A stretch of 64,000 bases of DNA from Mycteria americana. Taxonomy: Eukaryota; Chordata; Aves; Ciconiiformes; Ciconiidae. A model generated the notes under the pieces. The model did no database searches and had not been told where the DNA came from. It saw only the letters and a program-made list of their open reading frames with translations. Location of the stretch: contig NC_134370.1 of assembly GCF_035582795.1 (NCBI RefSeq), forward strand, positions 29,623,501 to 29,687,500, read 5' to 3'. Positions 26,096-53,147 of this stretch are shown here, one piece after another (position 1 is the first letter of the stretch; every line of letters starts with the position of its first letter). The position numbers and the translations under genes were made by a program.

Positions 26096-29000
26096 CACAC
26101 GTACCTTACTTTGCATCAAGATACCCTGATTGCGAGTAAACAGTTGAATGATACTGCTACCACCAGTTTCACATCCTCCTGTCCCAGTGCAATCCCTAAA
26201 TGATAACTGCCAGCTCTAATCCAACTCAGGCTTTCCAAAAATAGGAACCAAATGTTTGTGTACTAATTAAAAAATGAAGACATGGGACAGATGGCATTAA
26301 AGGAGAAAAGATAGATCGGGATGTGCAATTATTTATTTTATGTTTATTCATGGCTCTAACTTCTTTTTAAGTTGATCCAAAGGATTAGTATTATATATCA
26401 TGTAGTGCTATAAACGTGTAATAAATTGTTGCTCAAGAATGAAAGATTTGGATGTCCTTAAACTGTGATACATGTTAAACTCTTAGAACAAAAAGCAAAA
26501 GCAATGTTCAAAATCCAGATAGAAACTAGGTACGTTGCAGGCCAGGATACCTGCAGCGTAATGCTAGAGGTGGCTTAGGGGAACGAGGGCTCCCGGGGTG
26601 GGACTCCAGCAGAGCCCTGCTCAGCGCAGGGAGCCTGGCTGGGAGCTGGCCTCACCCAAGGGGCTGTGGCTGAAGATATGCTTGGAGAGGGTGAGGACAG
26701 GCTTCGGGTTAGAGGTAATATCTCCAAGCATGTGATGAATACGTGGGAAAGAGGCCTGAGGCTGACCTGTGTGCCAGACCAGGGAGTGAGAGTGTAACAA
26801 GCGTTCCTGGTCCTGCTAGCTGTATGACATCCTCAAGTGAAGAGCTGGGTGCAGCTGCAACAGGATTTGATGAGATAATGCTTCAGAAGCACCTCAGTGC
26901 TCTCAGGAAAGGCAGTGACAATTGGAAGGAAATGTTGCTGAGCAAGTTATAAAAACAAAAAAAGTTGCTGCTATTTGGAGTATTTAGATTAGGTGCAACA
27001 GCAGTGCTCCTTTTTTTTGTTTGTTTTCTTTTGATATGCAAAAAAAGAAGAAGCTGGAAGAAGAGAGATTCTGTATTGTCAAAATCAGGTTAGTTAAACT
27101 TAATCGCACCATAAGCCCATGAAACACTAGTGAAAAAAGGACAGTTTTGAATCAGACCATGAGAAGGGTTAGGGGGGCCACATTAGTGTAGATCTAGCAG
27201 GCATAATATGTACAAATTAAAATACATAGCTGGCTTATTTCTTTTCTCATCATTATAAAAATTCTTTTTTGTGTCTGGAAATTTTTTGCAGACTTTCATT
27301 TGAGAACCATTTCTGACTCATGTAAAGCTGGCTGCCAGAGTTTTAGTGCCTGCCAACCTGCTACAAAACTAAGGTAAGCACTAGACTTCAACCTTGCTGT
27401 CATGGTGGTGTTGTAGCTGCTTGGATGTCAAAGTACATTTCTTTAGACTACAGTCTCCTCAGTCTTTAATGTCAGTGAATTCACAAGTGACATAACATAG
27501 GTGATAAATTCAGAGCATACTCCATTTTTATTAGAACACTAGCCTACTCTTGCAAAGCGTCTTTCAACATTTTAAAGCAGGATTAGAAACTCTCCATGTT
27601 TCATTGAAAATACTATCCCTGAAAAGAAAATAATTTTAAATCTAAATAAGATATGAGAGTAATATAAGGAAGGAAAAGGAGAAGTTTAAGATCTGATCTA
27701 CACCTAAATCTAACAAAAGTTAAAAATAAATCCAGGCGTGTCATTTAAGCCAGATTTTAGAAGGCAGAAGGTATTGTACTTAAGAGTCTCCGTAACCAGA
27801 TATATGAGGGCAACCTTTAAAGTGCTAGCTCCCCTGAGGTCACAGGGAATGACTTGGGGTCAATATTCTCTTCTGATAAACAGTATGAGAAGACCTGACT
27901 TTTGGGTACTTGAGTGGATCTGGCTTCCTATAGTGCCAAGATTTTTATTCCTTTTAGACTGTTTTAAGGAAAATCTGCTTCTGTCACTTTTCAAAACCTT
28001 GATCCTAGGCCACATTATTACTGAAACTGAGTTAGTAACTTAGCATATCCTGCTTTTGCTAATCAGGGCTCAAGGAATAAATCATTGCCATTTAGAAGTA
28101 CGTAGAAATACTCAGCTAGAAGACACTGCAGAAGTCCTATAATGACTATGTGTGGTAGACAGCCTTATGAAGTTCTAATAACATTTTGATTATTCAACTC
28201 TGATATTTTTTGAGCACTGGGCTATAAATTAGTGAAGTCATAAAAAATGACATTTTGACTACAGGGGAAAAATCATGTGCGAAGCTGAAAAGAAGCATCA
28301 TCAGTTTTTTCACTTCTCTGCTGTAGATATGGGCATCTCTGTGGAATGTCTTCCACAGCATCCCATAATTAGATATCCATTTTATATAACAGATGATAAA
28401 ATGACAGCTGGGAGTGGGGAAAAAACACTGGGAATTCCAGATGTGGTCTGAAGAGTATGAACTGAGGTGAATATATTGCAGAAGAAAAATCTTTTCTGTT
28501 TGTATTTCAGATTTTGGATTTACTGCTAAGTTCAGCATCATGCAAATTGACTCTGACAGAGGCATGATTCGGAGTTGTTACAGTCCACGGAAATATTTTC
28601 CTTGCTTTTATTAAACTTTTGATCAGTCCTAAATGGAGAATTTGGATGGGCTTAAGCAATAGCTTGCAGTGACTTACACAGACATTGTTTCTGGTATTAT
28701 CAAATACACTGGAAGCCTGATTACGATATGCATTTGGTCTCTATCATGCCATGAAGGAGGCATATCAGTTAATTAGCTATCAGCTGCAAGTCCTTTGTTT
28801 GTACAATGTAATTGTTTACCATGAAAAAAATTATTGATTATTTGTTTAGATTAATTATTTAAATGTACCTAAAATAAAGTGGCATAGGGGAGAAATTTGA
28901 GATCATTCTACTAATTGCTTAGGAGGCTAATGGAAGGTTGAACTCCAAAACTACTTCTGCTTAAAACTTCTGCAAAGCAACAAAAATTATGGAGTAAGTA

Positions 29001-29494: not shown

Positions 29495-29512
29495 CGTTAG
29501 CTATAGCTAACG
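29495..29512. repeat. Perfect 18-bp palindrome
   Basis: CGTTAGCTATAGCTAACG is its own reverse complement, with no spacer. It lies 546 bases upstream of relic A exon 1. It may be chance or a binding site for a dimeric factor. Confidence 0.95.
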
Positions 29513-30057: not shown

Positions 30058-30235
30058 ACCAGACGAGTGAGCAATGCTGCTGCATCCAATGCTGAGAGCA
30101 TCAGTCCCAGGAACGAGTGCTTCTGGTCACAGCTCCACCGCTACAAGCCCACAGCAGGCTGTGGCCCTGCTCAGAATGGAAAGCCAGGCAATGACAGCAG
30201 AAATAGAAAGGAAATGGGGGTAAAAAGGGATCCAG
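30058..30235 (+). pseudogene. Collectin relic A, first coding exon
   Basis: An acceptor (ACTCTTCCAG) is followed by a 16-base leader ending AGCA and an ATG at 30074, the same leader length and ending as in the MBL copy. The exon ends GATCCAG|GTACAGA; CCAGGTACAGAA is shared with the MBL donor. In the frame of the donor it reads CGPAQNGKPGNDSRNRKEMG then VKRDPG, matching the family layout of a Cys followed by NGxPGxDGRxG...DPG, with glycines changed to Ser and Arg. The ATG (MLLHPML) is in a different frame from the stalk, so at least one indel separates them. The exon is about 30 bases shorter than in the MBL copy. Homology is inferred by eye. Confidence 0.65.
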
Positions 30236-31965
30236 GTACAGAAAAATGTCTTTCTCCAATTTGTCTCGCTGGTAACTACGTTCAACTATTCTTCATTAAA
30301 AGCATGTTTAGTACAGTCCTCCTCACCCTGCCGAGCATGGATAGAAGGTTTGTGAGCATAGCTGATCTGAAGGTTTATAAAATCTTCTGATTTCATGTGA
30401 TTATGTGGTGAAAGGCTAGATGAACATGAGCACCATGCAAAATGTGAGTGGAATATTCCACAAGTACGTACTGGTGTATAGATCTTTCAATGCTGGGTTA
30501 CCATATTTAAATGTGCTCTGGTCTGGTAGTGAATTAAATCTCTTCCTGGTGGAGTTGTTTCAGAAAGTTTTTGAAGAAGAATTCTTCATGCCTTTTTCTA
30601 AGGAAAATATGACGCTGTACAATATACAGCCCAGTTCAATATCTTACACTAAAGCTGGAGCATCTATAAACACTTTTTTTCCATATAAAAACATTTTTTC
30701 CATAATATATACAAGTAGGAAATGAAAGGCCAAAATAAGGGAAATTCTGTAGACTTAAGAACTCTTTTCAATATAAATTGTTGCTAATAATGAGGAATTC
30801 ATTAGCTATCCGGGAATGCTCAGCCAACATCCTTACCAAGCATGCTCAAAATGACCTAAAGTTGAAGATTTCTATTCATTATTAAGGCAATTAAAAATGC
30901 TTATGTTAAAACTAAAATGAGTTAATATGAAAAGTTAAAGCTGTCTGGACCCATTGGAAGCATCCTTCTGACTCCTGTTAAATTCTGCAGAAATCTGATG
31001 TTTCTAGAGGGTCAAAGGAAAGAAATTGAACTTCAGAAAAGGTCTGAAACTTTCCCACTACCAAGTTAAGAAAAAAATATAACTCTAATGCAAATGTATG
31101 TGCCATAAGAGATTGAGCGCTCATAAAATGAAGCTGCTTGCAAGAAAATACTATTAAGGCATTAAACAGATGAAAAAAACCAGTATAGAAGAGAGGGCTG
31201 CTGAAGGTTGTGAAAGGTCATGTAATCCATCTCTCTGCCTGAAGGAAGGATAGAAGAATAGTGCCTTTAGAGCAAGCCTTAAGGCAGTATGCTTTACATC
31301 TCCACTGCAGCTGGTTAGGCAGAAAAATGTAAACCTCTCTGATTCAAGCAAGCAAGACTTTCCACCCCTTCCTCAGCTTTTTGACACTGGTGGTGGCTTA
31401 TTTGCTCATCCATGCTAGCAGGCAGCTGAAGAGGACAAGGTGGAAGATAAGGGAGCCACAATAGCTGGTCACAGACAAGTGGCCTTGTACATCACCACTG
31501 CAGCTTCAGTGGCAGAAGAGGAGTCAGGTTTGCCCCTTCTGCCTAGCAAATCAGTCACTGCATTAGTCCTCCCCAAAAGCGTCTTCTGTAATTACATACT
31601 CTACCTCAGTTCTTGCAAAACTCTTTATTATTGTCTCTGAATATTATCAGGGTCTTCTCCAGCTATTTTCTGTTTTACTTTGCTACCAGATATCTAGAGT
31701 TTCTCTATGGCTTTGCGTTGGTACTTGTTATGGTTTCCCTGTAAGCAGCCTGGAGAGGATGGCAGAAATGTCTCTCAAATACGCCATAGTTGCACACAAT
31801 TCTTATCTTGCCGTTGTCCTCTCAGGATGGGTATTTGGGTAATATATTTTTCTCTTGCTTTCCACATTTTCCTCTTCAGAATTGTCATTGATTAGAGCCT
31901 CTAATGCCATTCTATGCAAATATAAGGAGAAAGGAAATAAATTTTTGCACTTTTGTTGCTTGCAG

Positions 31966-32020
31966 AATTCCTGAGAGCAGCAGAGATGGTGAGGAGGATA
32001 CTAAAGAAAGATAGGCAGAC
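31966..32020 (+). pseudogene. Candidate collagen exon of relic A
   Basis: The sequence follows a fair acceptor (TTGTTGCTTGCAG). One frame reads IPESSRDGEEDTKER before a stop. If the first position followed a Gly, every third residue afterwards would be Glu or Arg from codons one change away from Gly. This is only suggestive: the phase requires one lost base at the exon start, and I may be over-reading it. Confidence 0.2.
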
Positions 32021-32901: not shown

Positions 32902-33066
32902 CTTCTCTGATTTAACTCATTAGATCATGAAGTGTTGAAGATCTTCTTGGAAAAAATGGACTGTGTGGACCAAAAAGGACAATGTTCAAAGACATCAGAA
33001 GAGCTGGGTGGCATAGTTCAGCCTTTTCTTAAAGGAAACAAAAGACCCATAAAAAGAGTAGCCTAC
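32902..33066 (+). pseudogene. Collectin relic A, 5' part of lectin exon, cut by LTR
   Basis: A pyrimidine-rich tract and acceptor (TCTTCAG) precede a frame reading LDHEVLKIFLEKMD, then TSEELGGIVQPF and NKRPIKRV. This resembles the collectin CRD start (KIF, then C-x-x-A-G-G-x-x-A-S-P, then E-N-x-A-I), with the Cys position now Ser (TCA at 32995-32997) and a TGA near the exon start. The similarity stops at 33066, where the solo LTR begins. I did not recognise the rest of the lectin domain on the far side (33.66-34.1 kb). Confidence 0.4.
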
Positions 33067-33661
33067 TGTGCTGGTTTTGGCCGGGGTAGAGTTAATTTTC
33101 TTCATAGTAGCTCGTATGGGGCTATGGTTTGGGTTTGTGCTGGAAACAGTGTTGATAACACAGGGATGTTTTAGTGCCTGCTGAGCAGTGCTCACACAGA
33201 GTCAAGGCCTTTTCTGCTCCTCACCCCACCCCACCAGCGAGGAGGCTGGGGCTGCGCAAGAAGCTGGGAGGGGACACGGCTGGGACAGCTGACCCCAGCT
33301 GACCAAAGGGCTATTCCATACCATACAGCATCGTGCTCAGCATACAAAGCTGGGGGAAGAAGAAGGAAGGGGAACACGTTCAGAGTGATGGCGTTTGTCT
33401 TTCCAAGTAACCGTTAGGTGTGATGGAGCCCTGCTTTCCTGGAGATGGCTGAACACCTGCCTGCCCATGGGGAGGAGTGAATGAATTCCTTGCTTTGCTT
33501 TGCTTGTGTGCACAGCTTTTGCTTTCCCTATTAAACTGCCTTTATCTCAGCCCACGAGTTTTCTCACTTTTACCCTTCTGGTTCTCTCCCCCATCCCACT
33601 TGGGGGGAGTGAGCGAGCGGCTCTGTGGGGCTTAGTTGCCGGCTGGGGTTAAACCACAACA
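33067..33661 (+). mobile_element. Bird endogenous retrovirus solo LTR
   Basis: The element starts TGTGCTGGTTTTGGC and ends GGGGTTAAACCACAACA, the TG...CA ends of a retroviral LTR. The body, with CACCCCACCCCACCAGCGAG, a CTTTGCTTTGCTTG repeat and TTTTCTCACTTTTACCC, matches a widespread bird LTR family that I recognise as ERVL-like from memory. A poly(A) signal ATTAAA is at 33530-33535 and a TATA-like CATACAAAGC near 33339. No gag, pol or env region and no second LTR flank it, so it is a solo LTR left by recombination. The five-base flanks (CCTAC and TCCAC) do not match cleanly as a target duplication. It interrupts the collectin relic A lectin exon. Confidence 0.85.
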
Positions 33662-34108
33662 TCCACCCTTATAGACAGAAGCCTTGTAAAGTAAACAAGC
33701 GTGTTATAAAAGTAGGGGGGAAAAGGTCTCCTTCCTCTTTTCAGGGTCAGATAAGGTCCTTGTTTAGATAGGAGAAGCTGGCGTAGCATGGGTACAGCAA
33801 CTTCTGTTAGTCGCTTCTCTCATACAGATACATTTTGAAAGGCGAATCAGATTGAGACTGGGTTTGTGAGTGATTTGGGCACCTGTGGGGTTTCAGGTCT
33901 TGTTTTGTCCTCAGCTGAGAGATACAGCCAAGCTGTTGCATGGCTGGTGGTGATGGCATAAACAAGGGCAAGTTGGTGTGTACAAGAAATACAATATTCC
34001 TCCAAGAAAAAACATTTCCCAGAGTTACTGCAGCTTCCTTGGAGATCTGACTGAAGTAATACTCCAGGATCTTAGTAACACCAGTGCAACGTAAAGGCCA
34101 TCTCAAAG

Positions 34109-34600
34109 GGTTTCTTGTTCCAGGACCCCTTTGATCCTGAACCCCCTAGATCTTTCAGAGAACTACAGAGCTGGAAACCCATTTAAACTTTTCCTTTGGA
34201 ATAGCAGTACTCAGCTGAACTGACATCAAAGTAAATTGGCAAATTAGCTATGCATTTGTATGCAGTGCTCTCACATGTGGGTCACTCAGGGAAATAACGT
34301 GGGCTTGCTCAGCAGGCTCCTAGAAGCTGCCACTCTGCTATGCTGTGCTGAAAGTAATTTAGATGTATTGTGCTTCTGGGTCCTCCTCATTCTCCTATTC
34401 CCAAAAGGCATGATTGCTTGTGGAAAAATATTCAAAACTTATATTTTTGAAGGTGACTTGAGACTTCAAAAGCTCTTCACTGCCAAGCTGCTGGGCAGCT
34501 TGCTTCTCTAAGGAAGTCAGGAGAGAACAGTGCTATAGAATAACTAGCAGCTCGTCATAACCGTTACCTGAAATAGGTGATAAACAGGCAGAAGAAATGC
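34109..34600 (+). repeat. Duplicated non-coding segment, copy 1
   Basis: This segment matches 43605-44060 in the same orientation. Shared blocks in order include TGACATCAAAGT, CTAGAAGCTG, CTGCTATGCTGTG, ACTTCAAAAG and AGCAGCnnnnCATAA. The similarity looks like roughly two thirds identity by eye. It begins about 0.45 kb after the solo LTR in relic A. It has no coding meaning I can see and may be the ancient 3' flank of a duplicated gene, or an unnamed interspersed repeat. Confidence 0.65.
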
Positions 34601-37600
34601 TTAGGCAGGTAAGTAATAAAATCCTGTAACTTAAACTGGAAATTAATATGAACAAATAGAGTGAGAACAATGGACAAATATGTAAGTGAAAAAGTGGATG
34701 CTGTTAGTAATTTCTGACTCTTTAATCTACCTGTCCCTGGGTCATCACTTTGTGTAAATGTGCATGTTGCTTTATATGTTGTTAGTGTATCATATTTAAG
34801 TAACATTTTGGACTATATTGCATAAATGATGTCCCCATTATGGCTGTACTGCATCACAGTAACAAATTCACTATTTTAGCATTCCTGCTTGGATTCCACA
34901 TTGAAGTTTGCCAGCTAGATGACTTTCTTCCTTCATTCATTTTGTCACCAGTAAAAATTAATTTTCTTGTATTCTGCCCTTCTTACCACTTTTAGACAAA
35001 CAGATACTGTCTGCTGGGTAGTGACTCACTGAAAGGAAATTAATATTCCTTCTTACTGCAAGGTGATATTAACGACAATAAATTCTCCCATGACCTTATT
35101 TATCTATCATTTACTATGTAATTCACAGTTATGTGTGAAGAGCTGTGATGTGTCCTATGATCATCTAAAAACAGGTTAGAAAACATTGGGAGAAAAAGAT
35201 GGTTGTTTTTTAGGGCTTCTCTTGTATGTATGAAAGTTGTTGGGGATCTATTCCATATTTTTCAGAATTATGTCTGTATTTAGCCGTGTTATTTAAACCA
35301 ACATGTTAAAATTAGGCTTCTTAAAAAAAAAAAAAAGTGGGTAGATTTTAAAAAATTCAGGAAACCCACATCTCTCATTGAGGTCAGTGAAAACTTTGGG
35401 GTACCAGACTTTTCAAAAAGATGACACATGTCTTTGGGCTGTAGTGAAAAGGGGCTCCAGAGACTTAATGGTGTAGACGCTGCCCATCTACTGGAGCAAT
35501 TACTAACAGAAAACAGTCTGTGCCAGAAGATCCTGTTCTATTATATACCTCACTTTGCGTTACAGATCATATTGAAACTACTGGTCACATAAAAATTATT
35601 CAGACTATATGAGAGAAGTGACTAACAGAGTAACAGTCATTCTTATTGCACTGGAGCTGCAAACCTCCTGTTGGATGGGACATGACTGAGAAGTGTTTGA
35701 GAGCTAAGGGGTGCTGTCAGAACACATTAACAAATGCATTTTTGCATTTCTGTCATCATATCAAGATATCTTTGGCTCACTCTCTTTGGAAAGATCTAGT
35801 GTTTCAAAATCCTGGGTCTGGAAAATCTTGATAACTTCCACGTTTTTGGCAGCTACCTTTTAAGAGCAGTTAGGATTCATTCCCTAATATTTTTCAAATG
35901 CCAAGACACATTTTGTGGAAAGATATTCTACAAATGCAACAGCTTTGATTTCTAATGAGTAGTAACGCTATCAAAGATTAATGACAACAGCTAGTTGTTT
36001 GGATGGTACCATAAATTAGCTGTGGGGAGGGGGTTTAAAGCAAACAAAAAATTAAAAAAAAAAGGGTCCATCTTGGTTTTAGTCCATAATGTGGGGAAAT
36101 TGTGCATGGCATTTACAAAAGGCAAAACTTCATCTCTGTTGTCCTTGTATTCAAAAGAGTCAGATCCAGAGGAGGCACTGGGGAGAAACAGCTTGTTCTG
36201 CATTATTGTCCATCCACTACGTAACAGCCTATGGACACATCTCAAAGAAGCAAGTAAAGCTTGGAGCATTTCTCTAAGCAGGCTCAATCTGCAAAACGGC
36301 GTCTGCCCCATGACCAAGCTGTGAAACTACTCCAAAACTGTTCAAAACCTTAAAAGTGTTTTTGAAATAAAGAGGATGAGTAAGTGAAAACATAATAGGA
36401 AGTTGTTTGTACAATTCATGGTTATGTGTGACAAATGAATACAAGAGAACTGGTAAAGTATTAGTGGAAAGTAGGGGATAGGAGCTGCCATACGAGAGTC
36501 GTTACTGTAAGTTTTTAATTTCTTCGCAAATATTAGATGTTTGATTTTTTTGTTTAGTTCAACATTATCCCTGATATGTGCTTAATCCACAGTCCAAAAA
36601 GTCAATGGAAAGCTTTACAGTGTCTCAACTGTTGGTCAAGCAGCATATGTACTTTAATTAAATTCAGATTTTAAAAGTCAGCTAACTGTTGAAGCCAGGC
36701 TAGTTCTTTGGTAATATTTGGGGGGGGTAATAATTGGAGGTGGTGTTCATTTGTAGACATTCCCCATTATCTTAATCAGTTCAAAAGCATCTGGTTTACT
36801 AAGGCTTCTATATAATATGAGAAATTACAAAATAATTAACAAGAGACTATCCCAAAGAAGACCAGAAAATAGTGAGGGAGTGATTACTGGAATGGCATGG
36901 AAATGGATTTGGCATGGAAATATACATATTTGAAATCTACCTTAAATTCTATAAAGATCAGGCAATTTAAATCCAGTGCAAACGGTCACACAAAACTGAG
37001 AGCGATGCTAGCTACTGTCTTATTGCATTGGTTTTATTCAAGATGCGTAAATGTGTATTATTTATTCTTTAAATAAGTCTAGTGTTCCTTCAATATTCCT
37101 TCAGCATAATATACATGTTTAGTTCAGAGTTAGTGCAGAAAAGTGTGGAGTTAGTGCCGTGCAGTTAGTGCAAATCAAGCCCACTCTTCATGCTTTTCCA
37201 TAGCTAGCACTGAGGTCGGAGAAGCTGTGGACTGAGACAGAAACATGGTCGCTCCGGCACCTGGCTGTGTGGGCAAGCTTTTCTGTGCCCATATTGGAGA
37301 TATTTTGCCAGCAGAAAAGGGAAGGAGGAGTTGAGGCAAAGGAGATCCCAGGTATTAAAAAAACAAAACAAAAAAAATTCTTTCTTGAGGTTGTACTTAT
37401 TGTCTGCACATCTATCCAACTGGTAATAATGCCCAACTCTTTTCTTGTTGAAAGATTTTTTTACTGAAAATGACATAGTTTGGCAGAGCACATAGAAAAG
37501 GTTTTTGAGACAGCTGTCTAAAAGGCATGTGGAATCTGAATTTCCCAATTGCTTATAGTTACTAAAAAGCACGGTAGCGCTGCCAGTATGGTACATCAAT

Positions 37601-38963
37601 TCAAACTGTGCAGATGTACCACATTATATTGCAATACCTCTTAGCCTGAGAAGTTCAATGCTAAATTTGATGTCCAAAGGAGTGCAGCAATGGACAACGG
37701 AAGTGCTTTAGTAGAGGTGAAAAAGTGCATTCCCCCTTCCCTTCCTTTGTTTACTAAAACTTCTGAAAATATTGATCCTAGAGAAGAAATGTAGCTGTTT
37801 AGCATAAACATATGATTGGCTCGTGTTGCTGTTGAATCTTAAATACTTTAAGAACACTTCAAAAACAATGTTTTCTCCCCCCTTACCTCACACCAGTCCT
37901 GTTTAGCAAGAGCTTGATCAGACCTAAGCTGTTTGTCACTATACCAACATTACAAGACTCAGCTGTTAATAGAAGTATTGGAATATATGCTAAAGGAAGC
38001 CTATGGCTTTGCAAATCAGGGAGGAATTTATTTAGTAATAGAATTTTATTTAGAGATTGCTCATTAATTCTTTAAATCAGCTTTTGGTTACAAGTATTTG
38101 CTTAAGTTTATGCAACATAAATTGCATACAACTACAGCTCAAATTATTTCTCATGAATAATGTATTTGAACAAATATAGGCCTTTAATGTTCTTGCAGTT
38201 GATTTGTAGTCAGTTCATAATTTTTATGTCTGAGCTCATTTTTTCAAGTTGTTTACTTGTTTAGGTTAGAAGTGGGATTTTACATATCTCCAGGTATTTA
38301 CTATGCAATTTTTAGGGTGTATGATTTATTGCTTGTGGTGCTTTTTTCCTCTCCTTGAAAGTCTCTGGGAGTCTACCTGCCTAATAGCCTCCTGAAACAT
38401 TTACTGTGTTTGAGTTTACTGTGCAGGTAATGGAAAGAGAAGTGTAAACTGATGAAAAACATTTCTCTGCTTCTTGTGCAAATATTAATTCATGCAATGG
38501 TTGTACTATCATCTAACAAACTCTTTTGCATTCCTCCTATATGAGAGTGCATGTGTCCAAATATTCATGACTAAATAAATAATAGTACGCATAGATTGGC
38601 ATCATTCAGATTAAAGAAGTAGAATAAACCATGAGAACTATTCCAGGAGGAAATAATTTTATGGCAAAGTCATGTTTTCTGAAACATGAATGTTTCTTTC
38701 AGATCAGTTTCTGAGAAACTGCTGGAAATGCTGCCCTTCCTGGACCCGGATATCCTGGTGCAGCCCTGCTCACCCTCACCCTGGCCCTTTTGAGCTATGG
38801 TGGACTCAGGTACTTCTCTTGTTTCTTCTAACTGATCCATTTTAGACTGCGGTAGCTTAAGTTTCTGCTCGCCACTCAACCCCTTGCTCGTTATTCAGTC
38901 ACCCAGAGTCTCCAGTCACTCATGTCCTTTGAGAGAGACAGCTCAGGGATAACAAACAAGCCC
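34601..38963. other. Non-coding stretch, no gene recognised
   Basis: AT-rich sequence with A-runs (35323-35336) and no convincing exon. Overlapping opposite-strand frames near 36.0-36.3 kb are of chance length and show no motif. Confidence 0.55.
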
Positions 38964-39271
38964 ATGAAAATGAAATGGCTGCTTTCTGTTTCATTGCTCT
39001 GCCTGGGCAGCAGGATTTCAAGGCAGCGCAGGACTGTGGGCTGGATGGGCACCACCAGCTCTGCGGCCAAAGGGCTGCTCGTCCTCCTCGTGAAGGAGAG
39101 TTGCCGTCCCTGCAGCCCCTGTCCTGGTGCGAGAGCCCCGTGGCTGTGCCCAAGGGAGGCTCACCTTGTGGGAGACCAGGCATTTCCAGGAGGTGTTGAG
39201 GAAAACTGTGCTTGGGCCTCTCGGAGGTGGCAGTGTAGGGGAAAAAGGGAACAGCAGGCTTTGGCCCAGAG
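38964..39271 (+). pseudogene. Collectin-like relic B: signal and collagen-like block
   Basis: This GC-richer block starts with two ATGs (38964 and 38970). The second gives MKWLLSVSLLCLGS, a plausible signal peptide. After a frame change the text reads DCGLDGHHQLCGQRAARPPR and further on CGRPGIS, with glycines at partial three-residue spacing. The end (39240-39271) reads GEKGNSRLW before a possible donor CAGAG|GTGAGG. No single frame is open across it. It could be a degraded collectin (SP-A-like) 5' part, or simply GC-rich sequence that gives Gly/Pro/Arg codons by chance. The link to the lectin-like block downstream is the main support. Confidence 0.28.
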
Positions 39272-39835
39272 GTGAGGCTTCGTATGTTGTGCTCTTACTC
39301 CTGGTGTGTGTGTGCAAATGGTGCTGAAAAGGAGACATTTTTAGGTTTGTGTTTCTATCCATTGCAATCAATGAGTGCTAGGCATATGCTGTACAGGGGA
39401 AGGAGCAGCAATTAATACAGCATGTGCTTTGTCCCAAAGTGGTATTAACTGCAGTAATGCCACTTTAGCAGAAAAAGCAATTAAGTCATAACAGGCAATC
39501 AAGGAGAGCTGAAGATGGGAACACGGTCCAAGGCAAGAGACTACCATTTGAGCTCCTTGTTATGAGCCTTAGGCTTCATTTAGGCTCAGGTCTGGGGCTG
39601 TGCAGTTACAGGTGCAGCACAGCCTTCCTGCAGCAGTGCTAGCCCTGATGAGCACCTGTGTCACTCTCCACGGAAGATATGAAATCAAAACCTGTACAGC
39701 TCTTCAAAGCTTTCACACTGTCTTCTGGCAAGCTACTTAGACAGAAACGTGCTCTGCCACTTTTATCTGTGCTCTGCTTAGTACTGTCACAGCTGTGTTG
39801 ACTTATATTCTGATGTGATTTTTCCAGTGCAATTT

Positions 39836-40153
39836 CCCTCTCCTGGTGGAGAGTTAAGCCAGTCCTTAACATGACTAGCTGAAAAAAAAAAAAAAAAAAA
39901 AAAGCTGTCTGCTGTAAGGATGCTGCCTATTAATATGCCTTGTAATTAGTATGTCCTGGATCTATGTTCAAGAGGCAGAATTTCAGTTAACCTCTTTGGC
40001 TGGTGCAAGTTCCCTCTCAATGAGAGCGAGGAGTGAAAGCCAATGGTGGGGGCTCTGCAGCTCTATTCCCTAGCCCCTCTGGTCTCTGAGAAAAATGACT
40101 CACGGATCGGTTTCCACAGACCAGTGGCCATCATCCTCTGCGAGGAGACTTAG
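39836..40153 (+). pseudogene. Collectin-like relic B: degraded lectin domain
   Basis: Motifs of a collectin CRD appear in the right order but in shifting frames: GGEL then ASP after one extra base (39845-39866); PGSMFKRQN (about 39955-39981); VNLFGW followed by PLNESEE and a TGA where a Cys is expected (about 39987-40044); KNDSR in place of WND-x-x (about 40093-40107); and a terminal ILCEET stop at 40136-40153. A 22-base poly(A) tract splits the block. I judge this chain unlikely to be wholly accidental, but each motif alone is weak, and a profile search would decide. Confidence 0.35.
39882..39903 (+). repeat. Poly(A) tract, 22 bases
   Basis: An uninterrupted run of A lies inside the lectin-like block of relic B. 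No retroposed gene body is recognisable on its 5' side, so it is better seen as homopolymer expansion than as the tail of a processed pseudogene. Confidence 0.9.
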
Positions 40154-40159
40154 TTGCCA

Positions 40160-43100
40160 GGACAACTGTTGCCAAGACAGACTGGTTTTCCTTGGGAACA
40201 ATTTCAGTGCGTTATTTCTGTACAGCGAACCATTTCCCATGTCTATTGTTAGACCCATGTTAGAAGCTATTGGAGTTTTAGCTCCAGGTGGAAATTAGGA
40301 AACAGTAGGAAGGGAAAACAAGTCTAATTACCAAAAGGGTGTTTGCAATCCTACATGGATCTTTTCGTGGTCTCTCAGACTGTACATGCATTCTGCAAAC
40401 ATGGGCCCCAAAACCCAGCGTTGGAAGCCTCTTCAAACCATGACATCAAAATGAATTGCCAAGCTTACAAGCCTCTTTAAAAATATTTAGTTGGGAATAG
40501 GATAAGGTCCTTGGGGATATTCTGTATTGTAGTACATAACTATAAAAGTTCTTATGATTGAGTACAGTGGCTGTCATCAACAGCCTTGCATGTGCTGGAA
40601 GCAACAGATTCCACCACCTCACCCGACCTGGGAAATGCTGGTGATTTTTGGAATGACTGATATGCCCTCAAAGGACCGGTCTGTTCCTTTTGAAATTGCT
40701 TGTGAGTTTTATATCACCTTAAAGGTTGTCTTAGCTTCACTTTGTTAATGGTTAATAGTGTTAATGGTATATATGCAACAGTCAAGAATCGCTCTTGTTA
40801 CAGAGACTTTTAAAGTTTATGATTCAAAACTTTACCATTCCTGTATTAGTTTCCAATTTTTTGCATGAAATACTTTTGGTTCAAGTGGAAAATGTCTTTG
40901 ATTATTGTATAATATTAGACAATATTCAACTGAATGGATGTAAGCTAGTTAAATGAATAAACTACTCTCCTGAGCAATGAAAAGCAAACAAATTTAACAC
41001 TGTTATTGTTGTCCACCAGAGGTCACTTATAGGCCACTTTATTCATTATTGGCTATGCTTCACTTGCCCAGTTAGCAACTGTTGCTTCCCATATTAAGTA
41101 CTTCTGGATCAGCTGTACAAATGCGGGTCCTGAAGATCCTACTAATGACTTTGAATCTTTTCTGGAATCATTAACGTTAAGAAACAGAAAGGCAAAATCC
41201 TGCTGAAACACAAGAAAAACCATGAAAAATTGTAGGGACTTCGTTGATCCCATAATCTCAGTAGGTAATCTCAGTAACTACGCCATGCTTCCCAAGCTTT
41301 GCTGTGCATATTAAAGAATTTTCAGTGTGAACAGGCTCTACCCTGTATTACTAAATCTATGTGGGATTCTTATGTGGATTCTTATCTGCTCAATCTTCGC
41401 AAAAAATTTCTCAATGTGCACTTAAATTGAGAAGCAAAATGTGTTTACAGCTTCTGATACTTCAACTGTATGTGAATTTCAGCTGTTGTGTGCTTGCGGA
41501 GACCTTTGCTTCACAAATTTTTGTTGCAACATGAAGAAAACCCTCAAGAAGTAATTACTTGACCGATCAGTTGTCAAATGTGAACAACTCATCCAACTTT
41601 GGCAAAAGATGCCATTCTGCATCTTCTATTGCGGCTAGAGTGAAAAGCTGGAAATCAGACATGGTGTTTTATGAGCCCTTAAGCATCAAGAAAAGGTATG
41701 CGTTTGAAGCAGTCTGAACAGAAAATAACCCCATCCCGTTCATGTTTCATTTACAGTGGATGAAAGAAAAACAAAGGAAAAAGCGAGTAGGTTCTTGTTC
41801 CTCCAAGATGAATGAAGGGCAGAAATTCCCCATTAGTCTATAGATCCCTTTAGCCCAATAGTTAGATTATGTGCTCTGAACTTTGTATGAATGGCATTTA
41901 TTTTAGTTTTGTTACTTTTTGATGGCAAGATTTAACCAACTCTTGCACAGAGCAATATAGCACTGAACAGTTGAGCAACATACACCCATGTAAGCATCAG
42001 CATATTTTTTGTTTGATTCAGTTGAGTAAATATCAAGGCGTAAACTGTGGTTTTATTGTGAAGCACTGTAATTTATCTTTGTATGTGAGTTTGCTGGAGC
42101 CCAAGAAAAACCTGTGAAATCCTCTGTCTTTTTAGCTCCCTAATTCTTCTGATATTGGTACAAGATTGTAGCTGCTCTCAAATATAAAAGTGTAAATATG
42201 TCATGATTTTACATTGTCATTAGTTTTCCAGTTGCACTAAGCAACACATTTTTTGCAGAAGTCAAACAGAAAGCTGGGTGAAAAGTGGCCTGGTGGCTGG
42301 ATAAGAACTTTTCTTAAGTGGTGGATGGCCCATACACAGATACATTACAAATGCATAAGGTAAGTTCCCTTAAATCTCTATGAAGGTGAAGACAGAAATT
42401 GTTTAGCTTTATAGTCAAAATTTTACAATGTAGGTAAAAAAGAACAGCTGACTAGGGACAGTAAGAATAGCATCTTGATATTATCTTCTTTCTGAATCTC
42501 ATGCTTTTAAAGCTCAGATCTCTTTTAGCTCAGGTGACGGGAAGCTCAGTCAGCAAATTTTCAAAAGAGGAGGAGAAACTTGGTACGTGTGTTCTTAACA
42601 GTCAGTACTCCGAGTGGGGGGTCCTGTGTGAATTGTGAACTTTGTCTGAATCTCAAACAGAACTTCCTCTGAGTTAAGTAGGTTGTTTGGGTTTTTTTGG
42701 TCTGGGCTGCTTCAGAACTGTCTCGCTCTCTTGCAGCCTCTGTAAAGATCATATGCTCAGTCTTGAAAACTCCAAAGTACAGACTCGGCACCTCTGCAAA
42801 GTCTGGTTTTAATAAGAAACAGGAATAGGTGTTGGTTTATAAGCTCAGGTTCAGACTAATACCCAGTCATTTAAAGTTTGAGGGAGGGGAAGGTGGTACA
42901 AAATTCCGCTTTGTTCCTAGTTTGTCAGCTGTCTGGCCCAGGACAGAAAAACAAATTAAAGAATATCTGACTTTCATTAAAGTCCACTGGAAACTTGCTG
43001 GGATCTGCTTGTTTACGTCTTTATTTTTATACAGAGATGTGAACTCAGAGTATTACACATGCTGTTGCTTAAGCTGTCTAATTTCTACCATGAACAAAGG

Positions 43101-43604
43101 GTGAGACTCTGTAATAATAATTACAGTATTATTCCTATTCCTACTTATCTGTGTTATTACTATGGCATTGTTCCTAGTGTGTCCTGCTATATAAATTCCC
43201 TCCTTTCTCACAAGCATTTGATACTTTTACACTGCTCTTAATATACAGAGTGGACACAGGACATCCAAAGATTTTATCATTAATGAGGGTTGACTCAGGG
43301 TACTAGCCCAAAACAGGAAGCAACTGTTCATCTGCATGGTCTCTGTGGCAGGCCAACAAGTGAAAAGAAACAGATGAAGAGCTTCAGCTCTGCTCCATCC
43401 TTCTTACTGTGCAGAAGTACAGAGGCATGGTAGGCTACACAGGCAAGGGATAAATCACTACTAATTCAGAAGAAAAAGATCCTGCACAGGACAGTTTCTA
43501 CTTTATATCTAAGAGCTCTAATTAAACTCACTGTATGACCACCTATTAAGAATGGTGCTCCATAATGCCTGGTCTGAGTTTTTTCTGAAACAAGGTTATT
43601 CCTA
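40160..43604. other. Non-coding stretch, no gene recognised
   Basis: No mobile element or exon could be supported. Because it lies between relic B and the second copy of the duplicated segment, further collectin remnants too decayed to see by eye may be present. Confidence 0.5.
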
Positions 43605-44060
43605 GGGTTTTGTTCTTCAAAAGCCTTTAATCCTGACTGTGGTTGTCTCAATGAAAAGTTTGAAATACTTTGTAAATTCCTGGTTTGGGGATAAGAGCAC
43701 TCTGTTGGTCTGACATCAAAGTGAATCAATGAGCTAGCTGTGCATTTCTATCCACTCTTTAGCCATATATTCTTTTGCAAGTGTCTAGAAGCTGTCACCC
43801 TGCTATGCTGTGATGAAAATAATTGGATATAGTTCCCACTTCTGTTATTCCCATATGATGTTGCCGTTGGTGAAGAATACTCGAAACTGATGGCTCCAAA
43901 GGCAAGTTTGAAACTTCAAAAGCCAAGTGTTCTCATGTGCCGAGCTCCTTGCCTCTCCAAGGAAATCTGCAGAGAGCTGCACCATATATCAAAGAGCAGC
44001 CAGCCATAAGACCATTTCCCCAAATGAATGATATACAGAAAGAAGGTACATTCAAGGATG
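43605..44060 (+). repeat. Duplicated non-coding segment, copy 2
   Basis: This is the partner of the segment at 34109-34600, about 9.5 kb away and in the same orientation. A short stretch at 40440-40465 (TGACATCAAAATGAATTGCCAA) may be a third remnant just after relic B, but too little is shared to be sure. Confidence 0.65.
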
Positions 44061-44582
44061 TGAGGAACTCAGTACTCAGACTGGGAATCAGGAGAACCAA
44101 CTAATTCTGGAGGAAGGGAAGGCTGTATAGAAATAAGGAGATGGAAAATGAAATTACAAATCCAGTGAAGACAGACATTTAATAATTTGTGAATACTAAG
44201 CTACCTGCCCTTATGATTTTTATTTGTCACTTGATGCAGGAATTTACAATAGTCCTGTAGGTTTGGATACCATGTATAAACATGCGGGGTTTGCCACAGC
44301 TTAATAACATTTCTACTGTGTGACAAACTATGTTTCAGCAAGATGATGTCCTGACCTGGCGAGAACCTAGGGGTGGGGAAATTGCTGAGAATCCTATCTG
44401 CTTCATACTTCCGCTTTTGCAGGCAAGCAACCTTCAGGGAAGTTCAACAGACATTCAACAAACCAGACATTTTTGTGGGTTACAAGATGAGCCCTGGATG
44501 CCATGTGTTGACAGCATATAGATACCACATTTGGTTCTTGGCCAAAATAGCAAAGGTCAGTGTGGAAATTTCAGCTTCTTAT

Positions 44583-45142: not shown

Positions 45143-45834
45143 ACCTGGGGGGAACAGCTGGACAGTGGAAGCTCTATTAATAGAGAAGTTTATTCTAATC
45201 ACTAACTGTATCACTAGCATTATAGGGAAGAGAAGTAGTAAGTGATTTACTTAAAAGTTTAAAGATCTATTCCTTCACCCCATGTTGTTTTTCCAAATCT
45301 CACATCCCATTTTTAACCATAAATGGGTATGTTTGAGTTGTCCAGGTTTCTTCCAGGGATAATTCAGAGTACATTGCAGGAAAGGCAGTCACTGCAGTCA
45401 AGCAAGCCTCAAATATCCTTCCCTCTCCTAGGTTATTAAAAAATGAATCAATCGACTGAATAAAGGAGAAAAACCTTACAGTCAAAACTTTTAGTGCCTG
45501 CAGTTGTTCTGATTTTTTGGTTGTTCATTTGTACTGTAACACAGCTAATGTCTGTCCAAGGCCAGGCAAAGAGCAAAGGGCTCACTCCCAGAATGTCATA
45601 TGCAGTACCTGTAAATAGGGGTGGTAAGATTGAGGTAGGCAATCATTAGGATTGTGCAAGACAGAGATAAGACAGTAAGCAACCTGGAGGGGATTTTTGT
45701 TTTTTTCTCTTGGCAGGCTCGTCCTCATGGTAAAAATCCAGCAGGTTCCTGTTCCATTTCTTCTCTGCTACATTCTGTTGTGCTGGCTGTCAGGGAAGCC
45801 AGTGGTGCAATAAGTTTCACTGTGTACCGATCAA

Positions 45835-45866
45835 GTGTTTGCAAGTAAAGGTGTTTGCAAGTAAAG
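45835..45866 (+). repeat. Tandem duplication, 16-bp unit x2
   Basis: GTGTTTGCAAGTAAAG is present twice without a mismatch, a recent replication-slippage event. Confidence 0.95.
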
Positions 45867-48675: not shown

Positions 48676-48883
48676 ATCTGTGGACTTAGCAATGACTCTT
48701 TTTCAGCCTTTCAATGCCTCGGTACTTTGGCTTTCACTGTTGATGGTAATAAGTTCAGTTAACAGAGATAAACCTGAAGAGAAAATGTATTCCTGCCCAG
48801 TAATTCAGTGCAGTGCTCCTGCAGTCAATGGCTTACCAGGCAGAGACGGAAGAGATGGTCCCAAAGGTGAAAAGGGAAACCAG
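48676..48883 (+). pseudogene. MBL2: MBL pseudogene exon 1: signal peptide, cysteine region, stalk start
   Basis: The acceptor CACAG ends at 48675, which implies an untranslated exon further upstream. ATG is at 48692, after a 16-base leader. The 64 codons give a hydrophobic signal segment (residues about 8-22), then a region with cysteines in YSCPVIQC, which in the family make inter-chain disulfides. The stalk then begins with GLPGRDGRDGPKGEKG. The donor is CCAG|GTACAG. In related collectins this exon ends with one base of a Gly codon (phase 1). Here the last codons read AAC CAG and the exon ends in phase 0, one base short, which destroys the downstream frame. An upstream in-frame ATG at 48647 lies in front of the acceptor, so I did not choose it as the start. 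Confidence 0.88.
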
Positions 48884-50140
48884 GTACAGAACTATGACCG
48901 TTTAGCAATACTGTGTTTTTGACACTCCTTATCGTCCCTTTAGTCTTGTTTCATGCCTCCTTCATTCTTTCATTTTGTTTTTTTTACTTCTCTCCTTTTC
49001 TTCTGCCCCATTAACCTTTTGTAATCTCTGCACAATTTCAGGAAACTGAAAATGCTTTCTGCATTTGTAATGCTACTCTAGATACTTGGCTTTTAATAAA
49101 TAAAAAAAGTTCAATACTTTTTCACAGCAGCCCATAAAACAGAGCTGTAATGAGATTTTTAATCTAATTGTACCATTTGTACTCTGAATCACTTACAGAG
49201 TTTCCTACAATATCCTACTAAATGTTTATTGCTTTTTCTTTCCAGAGGCCAGCTCTCAAAACCAGAAATCATGCTTGCTAGAGTTGGCTACTCATCTGAT
49301 GGTCATAGCTTGATTGCTTCATACTCGCTAAGTCCCAACAACAGAATTCCCCCAGGGCATGATTTGTCAGGTAGGCGACTTTTTTCATGCACTGCCGCAA
49401 ACAGCAAATAGATCAGCAAGTGCTTTCTGTCATGTGGTAGAACCAAGTCACCTGCTCTTCCAAGTTGCCAAATCATAGTTTCTGTCCAAACGCTTAATAA
49501 GTACATATGGAATCATATACTTTCTTACCGTATCTTGTCTGTGTTATCATGTGTATACCACACGTCTTGGAATTACATCATTGCTTTTCAACCTCTAAGC
49601 AAACTCCCATCATTATCAATACCACTTGATATGAACTATGAGTATTTCAGTGGCATATATTGATAATCTGTATAGATATTTTCTGGTCCACATACCCTCA
49701 GTATGCCCTCTGCAATTTCATGGTTGAAATAAGTAAAGCCAGCATTATCTGTTTCAACAAACTGCTTCAGAAGTATTCTTAATCTTATGATTTAGCTCAT
49801 TTTCTAGATCATATACTGTGATGTGTGATTGGATGACAGTTGAAGTATACTGGCTTTGTGGTTTTAGAGCATGTATACTTCTGCAATAACATGAGACAGC
49901 ATTTATTTAATTTGATTTTCGGTGCCATAAGTAGGTGTAGTGAAGAATTTTTCATCAAAGTAATGCATTTCCTAGCAAATGAAGCTTTCCACAGGAACAA
50001 TTCAGTTTTCCTGAGATGTTTTTATTTTCGGGGGGGCGGGAAGGAGTCAGTGTTTGGTACTCTCTCTAAGCACTAAGAAAACATAGTGGGAGAAAAACTT
50101 AGAAAATATTGAAACAATTTTATTTTAAATCAAACTGTAG

Positions 50141-50248
50141 GAGAAGGATTGAGAAGTCTACAGGGTTTCCCCAGAGAAGTGGGACCTCCAGAAATAAAAG
50201 GAGATTTAGGACCACAAAGAGAGAAAGGACAAAAAGGCGAATGTGGAA
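50141..50248 (+). pseudogene. MBL2: MBL pseudogene exon 2: collagen-like stalk
   Basis: The 108-base exon is flanked by ...ACTGTAG and GTGAGA. Read in the ancestral phase (one base from the previous exon) it gives GEGLRSLQGFPREVGPPEIK and then GDLGPQREKGQKGECG. The Gly-X-Y register is clear, but at least four glycines are lost, each explicable by one G-to-A change in a GGN codon (AGT, AGA, GAA, AGA). An extra cysteine appears near the end. Read in the actual phase left by exon 1, the fourth codon is TGA. A collagen triple helix would not tolerate this many missing glycines. Confidence 0.85.
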
Positions 50249-50874
50249 GTGAGAAATTTATTTCTCATGTTTCTATATTCTGGTTTTCAACCTTTTAGTA
50301 TATTTTCCAAAAAATATTTGTGTTGATGTCCGGTATTCTTAAACATTATTTCAGGAAAGGTGTGATTTCCAGAAGTGTGAGGAGCAGAAAGATAAACCAT
50401 CTGTTACACAGGAGATGAGTTGACCAACATAACTGTGGGAAAAAAGTGTCTGGAATGAGTCACTAGTTTATTGTTGTATGTGAGTGAAATAACAAACCCT
50501 CTATCTCATCTTATAAATTTTTCTTTCATTCTTTCCTTGTTCATTTTTTTTTTTAGTTCAACTTTAATTAATTTAAAAATGTTTACATGTGTGTTTTGCC
50601 TTTGAGAACTGGGCTTTTCCCTCTGAATAGAAGATTACTTTGGCAGCCCTGAGAATTCAAAGCCCATCTAAGTATTCATCCCCATCAGGGATAAGGCTCT
50701 CCCAGTGGGACAAATTCCCATGGAACAAATCTGCAATGTGGCCTGTGGTTTCTGCTCTGGAAACCAAATAGCTCTTTCACATGGCATCAGGTTACAGGAG
50801 AGCTAAGCATCTCAGAGACAGTTGCTGTATAGTCATTTTAATATAAATTACTAAATAACACCCTTAACTCCTAG

Positions 50875-50964
50875 TTGTAGTGACCGATGACCTGCAGAGA
50901 CAAGTAACTGCTTTGGAAACAAAAGTACGGGTTTTGGAGGATGGACTAAATAGATACAAAAAAG
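50875..50964 (+). pseudogene. MBL2: MBL pseudogene exon 3: coiled-coil neck
   Basis: The 90-base exon lies between ...ACTCCTAG and GTAAGT, phase 1 to phase 1. In the ancestral frame it reads VVTDDLQRQVTALETKVRVL followed by EDGLNRYKK. Val and Leu recur with heptad spacing, as expected of the alpha-helical neck that trimerises collectins. This is the best-preserved exon; no stop or lost hydrophobic position is seen in the ancestral frame. Confidence 0.87.
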
Positions 50965-52624
50965 GTAAGTTCCAATCATTGATTAGTTGTCTTTTTGGCC
51001 TGGTAAAATGATGGACATGCTTGTGCTGGAGAAGGGACTGAAAACAGTAGGTTGAAACAAATATAACAAATTTCTCTTGTGGTGCTCATGGGAGATGGTC
51101 ATTAATTAAATGTTGTCTCACTGAATACATCCTTCCTGAACTGGCCTGCCAAACTTTAAGGATCACTTTGCCAACAGACAGGGCAGGGGCTTTGTTACAC
51201 GGACTGCGGGATCAGCTGCTGTTCTCTGGGTGCTTGTGCTTTAAGCGTTGCATTACATTTCTCTCACTGCCTCAGTTCTAGATAATTTTCTGTGAGTAGA
51301 CATGGATTGGGATGTTGTCTGCCTGGGCCTAGCTGCAAGTAATTTCTCAAGAGATACTGTGTGAAAATTTCAAAGAATGTCTCATCAGTGCACTACTAGC
51401 CCTGGTACAAATGCCGCATTAGGAAAAGCACAAGGTCCATCACTGTTCTTAAGTCAACTTGGGAGGAAATGACACAGGCTGCAATTTACTACATCACGAG
51501 CATCAGCAGAATAAAGTCATATAGCTCCGCACCACGTGACGGCCATCCTTCCAAGGGGGTGTCTTCCCTGGAGAAAGCACAACTTTGAAGCCATAGTTGT
51601 GTGCAAAGCCTGAAAGTTAACCTGAAATTGGGGCAAGAAATTGAAGAGCACAGAGAGGCTGAACAGCTGGTAGCAGTAATCTCTTCAGCCATCTCCCTTT
51701 TTCTCCTCCTGCGCTCATGTATCAGCACCCTAGAAAAGGGTGTCTGAAAAGGTTGTGGAGGTTTTACCTGGCACAGAAGTGTAGCACAAGAGCATTGTGC
51801 TGGTACCATTCCCACAACATCAGGGGAAAATTTAACTATGCATGTGTCACAGTTTTTGTATCATTGTTATAAGGTGGTAGACTCCCTTCACGCTAATCCC
51901 GCAAACCTGTTAAAGGCAATAAGGTAAAATAACTTGCCCATTAAAGACAGCAACTGTGTTTCAAAAGAATTGCTGCTAGCAGTTTTATCTGCTAAGCCAA
52001 CAAGAGTTTCACTTTCCATTGGCTTTTCACGAAGCCCTGTGAAGCATTTGAGCTATATATTCCTACTTCTCCTAAGATAATTTATATTTTCTGGAGAAAT
52101 ACTCAGTTTCCCGGGCTCACTAAAGCTGTCCCTATGTCTCCTCTTTCTGCTCTGTCACTTTAAACCCTGAATTTTGTTACAGTCCCTCAGCTTTGGTTTC
52201 TATGATAAAGCTGATGGGTACAGAAGATCTCCTAATTGCAGCTCAGTTCCTTTGTATGGTTTTAATTGATCTGTGATTTTTGCATTGAAACTTGGCAAGC
52301 TATTTTGTCATGCTTGCAATTTGAGTGTGAATTCCTTCAGATCCTGATTCAAGAGCTGTAATACCATATGAACTGGACATGAAAAACATTAGAACAAGAC
52401 TTGTGATCCAGTTTCTTGTGAAATTCCAGTTTTCTTGAAGTGTGGGCTTGATATTTCCAGGCGTCTCTTTTGTTTGACTTCTATTGGATTCTGCCTACTA
52501 TTTCAACAAATAGTCTGTTTATAGCTGGTGTTAGCTACTTCTGAAGTACAATGGTGATATGGATAAATAACTATAGCATGATCAATTTTTGGTATGATAC
52601 AATTATGTTCACTTTCATTTCTAG

Positions 52625-53000
52625 CTTTGATTTTAAGAAAATCAAGAGTATTGGTAAAAAAATATTTGTCTCAACTGGAAAAGAAGATACTTTTGACAAT
52701 GGAAAATCCCTTTGTGCAAAAGCTGGAAGTGCATTTGCCTCTCCTAGGAATGAGGCTGAAAATACAGTTTTAAAAGACTTAAGACCTTCAAAGCAGGCTT
52801 ATATGGGGATATGTGATGAACAGACTGAAGGCATGTTCATGTATCTGAATGGAGGTGCTGTAACTTACAGAAACTGGAATGCTGGAGAACCAAATAATCT
52901 AAAAAATGAAGACTGTGCAGTAATACAAGACTCTGGAAAATGGAATGACGTTAATTGTTCAAATTCACATGCCTTAACTATTCGTGAATTCTTGAGCTGA
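52625..53000 (+). pseudogene. MBL2: MBL pseudogene exon 4: C-type lectin domain
   Basis: The acceptor TTTCTAG is at 52618-52624. The lectin domain is in one open frame from about 52632 to the TGA at 52998-53000. Seen in order: KKIFVSTG, SLCAKAG (first Cys), SPRNEAEN, the sugar/calcium motif EPN (52887-52895), EDCAVI (second Cys) and WND (52941-52949) followed by NCS (third Cys). The Glu-Pro-Asn form indicates mannose-type specificity in the family. The expected fourth cysteine near the C-terminus (ICEF/ICEL in relatives) is CGT, Arg, at 52983-52985, so one conserved disulfide cannot form. The phase inherited from exon 3 does not match this frame: reading straight through gives a stop about 45 codons in. 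A net one-base deletion in the first 30 bases explains this. Confidence 0.87.
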
Positions 53001-53141: not shown

Positions 53142-53147
53142 AATAAA
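53142..53147 (+). promoter_or_regulatory. Poly(A) signal of the MBL pseudogene
   Basis: AATAAA lies 142 bases after the lectin-domain stop codon, in an AT-rich 3' flank. Position and sequence fit the 3' end of the collectin transcript unit. Confidence 0.6.

What the first reader, a model, noticed from the sequence alone, without database searches (positions are those of the whole stretch)
48676..53000. MBL gene intact in layout but dead in sequence
All four exons, splice sites and the poly(A) signal are present. Yet two frame shifts, a resulting early stop, at least four lost stalk glycines and a lost CRD cysteine coexist. The glycine losses are all single G-to-A changes, the signature of neutral decay rather than one accident. 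Loss of MBL in a bird would mean a missing lectin arm of complement.
Basis: partly seen in the sequence, partly recalled or inferred. Interest (0 to 1): 0.82.

Follow-up and report, generated by a model that had tools for sequence, protein, structure and literature searches.

The report
Dead mannose-binding lectin gene in storks
The wood stork's gene for mannose-binding lectin, a blood protein that tags microbes for destruction, still has its full layout but is broken, the breaks seem to be shared with other storks, and remains of a second lost lectin gene lie beside it.

Summary
Confirmed and extended. The window is wood stork (Mycteria americana) or nearly so: NCBI protein P0090 of that species matches it exon by exon. 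The locus is a four-exon MBL orthologue (tree) with ordered splice sites and a poly(A) signal, but with one-base deletions in exons 1 and 4, a stop at codon 68, 4 of 19 collagen glycines lost and the last CRD cysteine lost. Protein models of two Ciconia species carry letters expected from the same deletions and three of the four glycine losses, so an assembly error is unlikely and the death predates the Mycteria-Ciconia split. At sites invariant in 14 intact birds the window changed at 10 of 101 against 47 of 1542 leave-one-out (p=0.002). Of 37 named bird MBL rows, 15 look whole or nearly so and 22 do not, so loss may be recurrent. Upstream on the same strand lie relics of SP-D, a gene birds are reported to lack. 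'Missing lectin arm' overstates it: CL-10 and CL-11 are reported conserved in birds. No dN/dS, read or RNA test was possible.

The parts
48692..48883 (+). MBL exon 1: signal peptide, N-terminus with two cysteines, first collagen triplets; one-base deletion at about 48878
   Evidence: 57 of 65 residues identical to Podargus MBL; boundaries
50141..50248 (+). MBL exon 2: collagen stalk; premature stop TGA at 50150 in the shifted frame; glycines lost at 50155, 50173, 50191, 50218
50875..50964 (+). MBL exon 3: neck (coiled-coil trimerisation)
   Evidence: 25 of 30 residues identical to Podargus; Pfam Surfac_D-trimer E=0.0007, 19.9 bits, below the curated cut-off of 22
52625..53000 (+). MBL exon 4: C-type lectin domain; one-base deletion at about 52639; EPN and WND kept; last cysteine codon now CGT at 52983
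   Evidence: Pfam Lectin_C 3.8e-18; best PDB match human MBL 1hup, E=2.4e-31
53142..53147 (+). poly(A) signal AATAAA
44871..44911 (+). first coding exon of NCBI's Mycteria model P0090, which avoids MBL exon 1
   Evidence: 14 of 14 residues match; followed by GTATGA
49246..49370 (+). second exon of the P0090 model, inside MBL intron 1, joined in frame to exon 2
   Evidence: sequence; matches; transcription not tested
26200..26268 (+). relic of an SP-D first coding exon, with a stop codon inside
   Evidence: score 59 against controls of 25-41; 59 against shuffled maxima 37-38; only 4 of 6 SP-D-type queries peak here
30160..30243 (+). relic of a collectin first coding exon, best matched by SP-D, collagen glycines decayed
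   Evidence: score 82 to turtle SP-D, 67 to duck MBL, controls 23-35; peak 74
34389..34564 (+). relic of an SP-D lectin domain (N-terminal part), one frameshift, one stop
   Evidence: score 100 to crocodile SP-D, 40-57 to three MBLs, controls 24-35
43839..44196 (+). relic of an SP-D lectin domain, near full length, 4-6 frameshifts and a stop
   Evidence: score 180 to a turtle SP-D-like protein and 137-169 to five further SP-Ds, 83-98 to three MBLs, 74 to an SP-A-like protein, controls 24-39

Best explanation
This is the wood stork's own MBL gene as a unitary pseudogene: the gene in its own place with its introns, not a processed copy and, as far as tested, not a spare. Shown: two one-base deletions, an early stop, loss of 4 of 19 stalk glycines and of a disulphide cysteine, with matching marks in two Ciconia protein models. 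Inferred: the normally spliced message stops at codon 68 and is removed by nonsense-mediated decay; a variant message that skips exon 1 reads collagen and neck but goes out of frame at the start of exon 4, so no lectin domain is made. The gene died before Mycteria and Ciconia parted and has drifted since. Its neighbour SP-D died earlier, judging by heavier decay. The lectin pathway then most likely runs on CL-10, CL-11 and ficolin (ficolin recalled; none checked in a stork).
For: Layout and lesions. Orthology: in a 27-row tree the window joins C. maguari (100/97) within 9 bird rows (100/99) inside 14 sauropsid rows (99/94), apart from the SP-D clade. Not an error of one assembly: of 37 bird rows, 21 read KGE(K/R)G(E/D)P at the end of exon 1 and only C. 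boyciana reads KGEKGN, as the window does; 2 of 2 Ciconia rows read NFDFK(K/Q)IKSIG at the exon 3/4 joint, a reading that fits the exon 4 deletion; 2 of 2 also have G70S, G76R, G82E. NCBI's Mycteria model P0090 follows the shifted frame and stops 49 residues into exon 4. Relaxed constraint: 10 of 101 invariant sites changed against 47 of 1542 in intact birds left out one at a time, p=0.0019; 7 of 16 Mycteria-C. maguari differences fall on invariant sites (0.44), neutrality predicts 0.42. No second stork MBL among the best 120 rows.
Against: The CRD exon is open for 151 codons in its own frame and keeps EPN and WND. Against four intact species pairs (28 of 118) the stork share of changes at invariant sites is only suggestive (Fisher p=0.083). 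Ciconia DNA was not seen; its lesions are read from protein models. The exon 1/2 joint of C. maguari is garbled, and that of C. boyciana (GN-VGEG) I could not derive from a GT-AG splice of the window sequence; P0002 is not flagged low quality. FDF readings also occur in the grebe and bustard rows, in other forms. The own-genome search did not complete, so a second copy is argued against by protein searches only.
Confidence: 0.92

Rival explanations
1. The gene is rescued by splicing: the other first exons avoid the exon 1 deletion, and a donor 4 bases further on at exon 3 (GTAA|GTTCC) restores the CRD frame, giving a shortened lectin.
For: P0090 shows an in-frame route round exon 1; both Ciconia models read as if this shift were used (KKGNFDF).
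Against: The shifted donor TAA|GTTCCA fits the consensus at 3 of 9 positions, the standard one AAG|GTAAGT at 9 of 9. P0090 uses the standard junction and loses the CRD. By eye it has no signal peptide (not run through a predictor). Four glycines are lost and the CRD disulphide would be broken. Gene builders choose such joints to save a frame (recalled).
Confidence: 0.04
2. It is a dead duplicate, and a working MBL gene lies elsewhere in the stork genome, as in humans where MBL1P1 is dead and MBL2 works.
For: A dead MBL beside a working MBL gene exists in man (PMC2885306, one passage).
Against: The three stork rows found are all this gene and no other stork MBL is listed among the best 120 rows, where an intact one should rank near the top.
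Confidence: 0.03
3. The frameshifts are sequencing or assembly errors in an intact gene.
For: Both are one-base deletions in or near short A or G runs.
Against: Matching marks in two Ciconia models; the lost glycines and cysteine are substitutions, not indels; 10 of 101 invariant sites changed.
Confidence: 0.01

Closest known systems
Human MBL1P1 pseudogene
   Same: A dead MBL gene. [quoted passage not shown] Stalk damage is seen here too.
   Different: In man MBL2 still works; in the stork no second MBL was found. Here frameshifts come on top.
MDA5 (IFIH1) loss in storks and Gruiformes
   Same: An innate sensor inactivated by lesions shared across storks; disrupted in Ciconia boyciana, C. ciconia and C. 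episcopus, dated there to 64.5-17.5 million years ago (PMC8619217, abstract and passages).
   Different: A cytosolic RNA sensor in another pathway; Mycteria is not among the disrupted species named in the passages I saw.
Reported loss of SP-D in birds
   Same: A neighbouring collectin stated to be lacking in birds completely (PMC12077231, Introduction read in full).
   Different: That loss is stated for birds as a whole; MBL is whole in fowl, duck, frogmouth, owlet-nightjar and one hummingbird row.

Membership tests
Mannose-binding lectin (MBL) orthologue | Falls with sauropsid MBLs, outside SP-D | tested here: met
   27-row tree: 9 bird rows 100/99, 14 sauropsid rows 99/94. The unrooted tree leaves mammal MBLs as a third group, so it does not by itself show mammal and sauropsid MBL as one clade; the best PDB match is human MBL (2.4e-31) ahead of SP-A (1.5e-24) and SP-D (2.9e-24)
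Mannose-binding lectin (MBL) orthologue | N-terminus with two cysteines, collagen with the MBL interruption, neck and CRD in four exons | tested here: met
   (layout met; collagen triplets broken at 4 of 19; Pfam collagen and neck below their cut-offs)
Mannose-binding lectin (MBL) orthologue | Working CRD: open frame, EPN, WND and four cysteines | tested here: not met
   EPN and WND kept, frame broken, fourth cysteine lost
Unitary pseudogene | Several disabling lesions in a gene that keeps its introns | tested here: met
Unitary pseudogene | No intact copy elsewhere in the genome | tested here: inconclusive
   no second stork MBL row; own-genome search unanswered in 12 tries (last)
Unitary pseudogene | Intact orthologues in relatives | tested here: met
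   11 of 37 bird rows whole with no glycine substituted, 4 more with one
Unitary pseudogene | Neutral evolution (dN/dS near 1) | tested here: inconclusive
   protein-level stand-ins agree; no other bird DNA was at hand, so no dN/dS
Surfactant protein D (NCBI's name for the Mycteria gene) | Groups with reptile and mammal SP-D | tested here: not met
   tree; rows named SP-D from Pygoscelis, Aegotheles and Calypte also fall with bird MBL

The most novel reading that the evidence does not exclude
MBL has died many times over in Neoaves. Of 37 named bird rows, 22 are broken, cut short, flagged low quality or have two or more stalk glycines lost (storks, penguins, loon, gannet, pelican, ibis, raptors, shorebirds, flamingo, grebe, bustard, seriema, falcon, mesite), and no passerine, parrot, dove, owl or ratite is named among the best 120 rows. 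Storks would then lack a working MBL and SP-D, and at least Ciconia also MDA5, making birds a natural knock-out series for the lectin pathway.
Probability: 0.6. Interest if true: 0.72.

Novelty: new member of a known kind. Interest (0 to 1): 0.55.

Why it matters
MBL is the textbook starter of the lectin pathway of complement. A bird family without it, which may also lack SP-D and in part MDA5, shows that these sensors can be spared, and gives a ready comparison (storks against fowl and ducks) for what MBL is needed for. It also flags a misleading database name: MBL orthologues of several Neoaves are filed as SP-D, a gene of which this window holds only relics.

Tried and rejected
Collagen-first decay (stalk breaks before CRD): pooled over seven broken lineages, 25 of 68 changes at invariant collagen or CRD sites are in collagen; neutral expectation 0.388, p=0.68; Mycteria alone 5 of 10, p=0.34. 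Against intact birds (6 of 31) the collagen share is higher, p=0.065. So collagen decays as under neutrality, not faster. Four broken pairs pooled against four intact pairs: 50 of 126 against 28 of 118 changes at invariant sites, p=0.0055, but those rows come from gene models of mixed quality. For the counts I left out alignment positions 61-67 and 131-136 (model joints; one search kept them in its leave-one-out of intact birds) and used 14 intact birds, dropping Gallus X2 as a second row of one gene; the leave-one-out sets of invariant sites are slightly larger than the set used for the window, a mild bias. Rfam and tRNA scans: nothing. In one search the Varanus pieces were cut wrongly and not used; one further weak peak (50, ending at 31996) appeared with the crocodile N-terminus only and is not counted as a relic. 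In print? Ten literature searches, seen as listings, gave no paper whose title or abstract start reports MBL loss in birds; subscription journals are mostly not held.

Full report
What the window is. A read-through of the broken gene, searched against 5.8 billion proteins, finds bird MBLs at the top: Ciconia maguari 87% and Ciconia boyciana 92% identity. A 170-residue protein named 'pulmonary surfactant-associated protein D isoform X2 [Mycteria americana]' (P0090) matches this window with 100% identity in exon 2, in the shifted frame of exon 4 and in a first exon at 44871, and 29 of 30 in exon 3, the odd residue being the codon split by the junction. The window is therefore wood stork, family Ciconiidae, or something nearly identical.

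The lesions. The four exons and their splice sites are in order. Against the Podargus MBL, exon 1 lacks one base near its end and exon 4 one base near its start; duck MBL shows the exon 4 deletion too and stops aligning just before the exon 1 one. Spliced normally, the frame stops at codon 68, 186 nt before the last junction, which by the usual rule (recalled) marks the message for decay. In exon 2, 4 of 19 stalk glycines are lost, each by one G-to-A step, and the last CRD cysteine is arginine. A one-codon gap in the CRD (KDL-RPSK) is shared with both Ciconia rows and also seen in the flamingo row.

Is it an error? C. boyciana reads KGEKGN at the end of exon 1, as the window does, where 21 of 37 bird rows read KGE(K/R)G(E/D)P. 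Both Ciconia rows read NFDFK(K/Q)IKSIG at the exon 3/4 joint; of the other bird rows the grebe (SFDFKKN) and the bustard (SFDFEEHQ) have FDF readings in other forms. G70S, G76R and G82E are in all three stork species, G91R only in Mycteria, and C. maguari keeps the last cysteine. So the gene was broken in the common ancestor and went on decaying. The two Ciconia are dated to a split of about 17.9 million years ago (PMC11494145, passages), a minimum age if Mycteria lies outside Ciconia (recalled). A weakness: the Ciconia evidence is protein models, not DNA, and the exon 1/2 joints of both models are unexplained.

Is it under constraint? At sites invariant in 14 intact birds the window has changed at 10 of 101; intact birds left out one by one have changed at 47 of 1542 (p=0.0019). 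Mycteria and C. maguari differ at 16 compared sites, 7 of them invariant sites (0.44; neutral 0.42); four intact pairs give 28 of 118 (p=0.083). This agrees with drift but is not a dN/dS test.

Which gene? In a 27-row tree the window sits with bird and reptile MBLs and not with SP-D. NCBI's name SP-D is therefore a misnomer here and for the penguin, owlet-nightjar and hummingbird rows tested. The mammal MBLs form a third group in that tree, so it does not settle mammal-sauropsid orthology. The best solved relative is human MBL (1hup).

The neighbours. Upstream on the same strand lie pieces that match SP-D better than MBL or SP-A: two first-exon relics (26200-26268, 30160-30243) and two CRD relics (34389-34564; 43839-44196, with 4-6 frameshifts against SP-Ds), with best scores of 59-180 against 23-41 for shuffled sequence or other stretches of the window. 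The first is the weakest, and for the second the margin over MBL is small (82 against 67). The minus strand and one shuffle gave nothing above 45. No named bird is among the best 120 rows for crocodile SP-D, in line with the statement that birds lack SP-D (PMC12077231, Introduction read in full). The order first exon, first exon, CRD, CRD does not give simple tandem pairs; I leave the pairing open.

How wide is the loss? My grouping of the 37 named bird rows (36 species): 11 rows (10 species: fowl, duck, frogmouth, owlet-nightjar, one hummingbird) have no glycine substituted, four CRD cysteines, EPN and WND, though the owlet-nightjar and hummingbird rows have one and two glycine positions in gaps and chicken X2 a different N-terminus; 4 rows (treeswift, trogon, hummingbird, swift) have one glycine lost; 22 are broken, short, flagged low quality or have several losses. 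Some of the 22 may be poor models or gaps: the Humboldt penguin row has all glycines and cysteines and is counted only for its flag. Rows are clusters at 90% identity, so they are not a census. No passerine, parrot, dove, owl or ratite is named among the best 120. This suggests recurrent loss but does not prove it.

Function. MBL binds sugars with its CRD and carries MASP proteases on its collagen stalk (established knowledge). With stalk, frame and disulphide broken, a working MBL from this locus is very unlikely. [quoted passage not shown] Storks of the genus Ciconia have also lost MDA5 (PMC8619217, abstract and passages).

Noticed in passing
window 26200-44196, + strand: Four relic pieces best matched by SP-D (two first exons, two lectin domains) beside the MBL pseudogene: physical remains of a gene that birds are said to lack.
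   Followed up: yes
window 50191 (glycine 82 of the stalk): The same glycine-to-glutamate change G82E recurs in stork, loon, gannet, snake-eagle and osprey rows but not in penguin, pelican or flamingo rows: a hot spot, or an old allele sorted unevenly in the early neoavian radiation.
   Followed up: partly
window 17202-17288, 38975-39148, 44373-44558, 45714-45839: Stretches matching upstream exons of MBL-type models from loon, owlet-nightjar, ibis and chicken; the loon one at 38975 is 91% identical. They may be old 5' exons.
   Followed up: no
protein database rows P0004, P0005, P0008, P0010, P0013, P0016, P0090: Bird MBL-like proteins carry the NCBI name pulmonary surfactant-associated protein D; the tree places the three tested (P0004, P0008, P0010) with MBL.
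   Followed up: partly
protein rows P0046 (Pelecanus), P0069 (Falco): Gene models that start as MBL but end in another collectin's lectin domain, as if the builder passed over a broken MBL exon 4.
   Followed up: no
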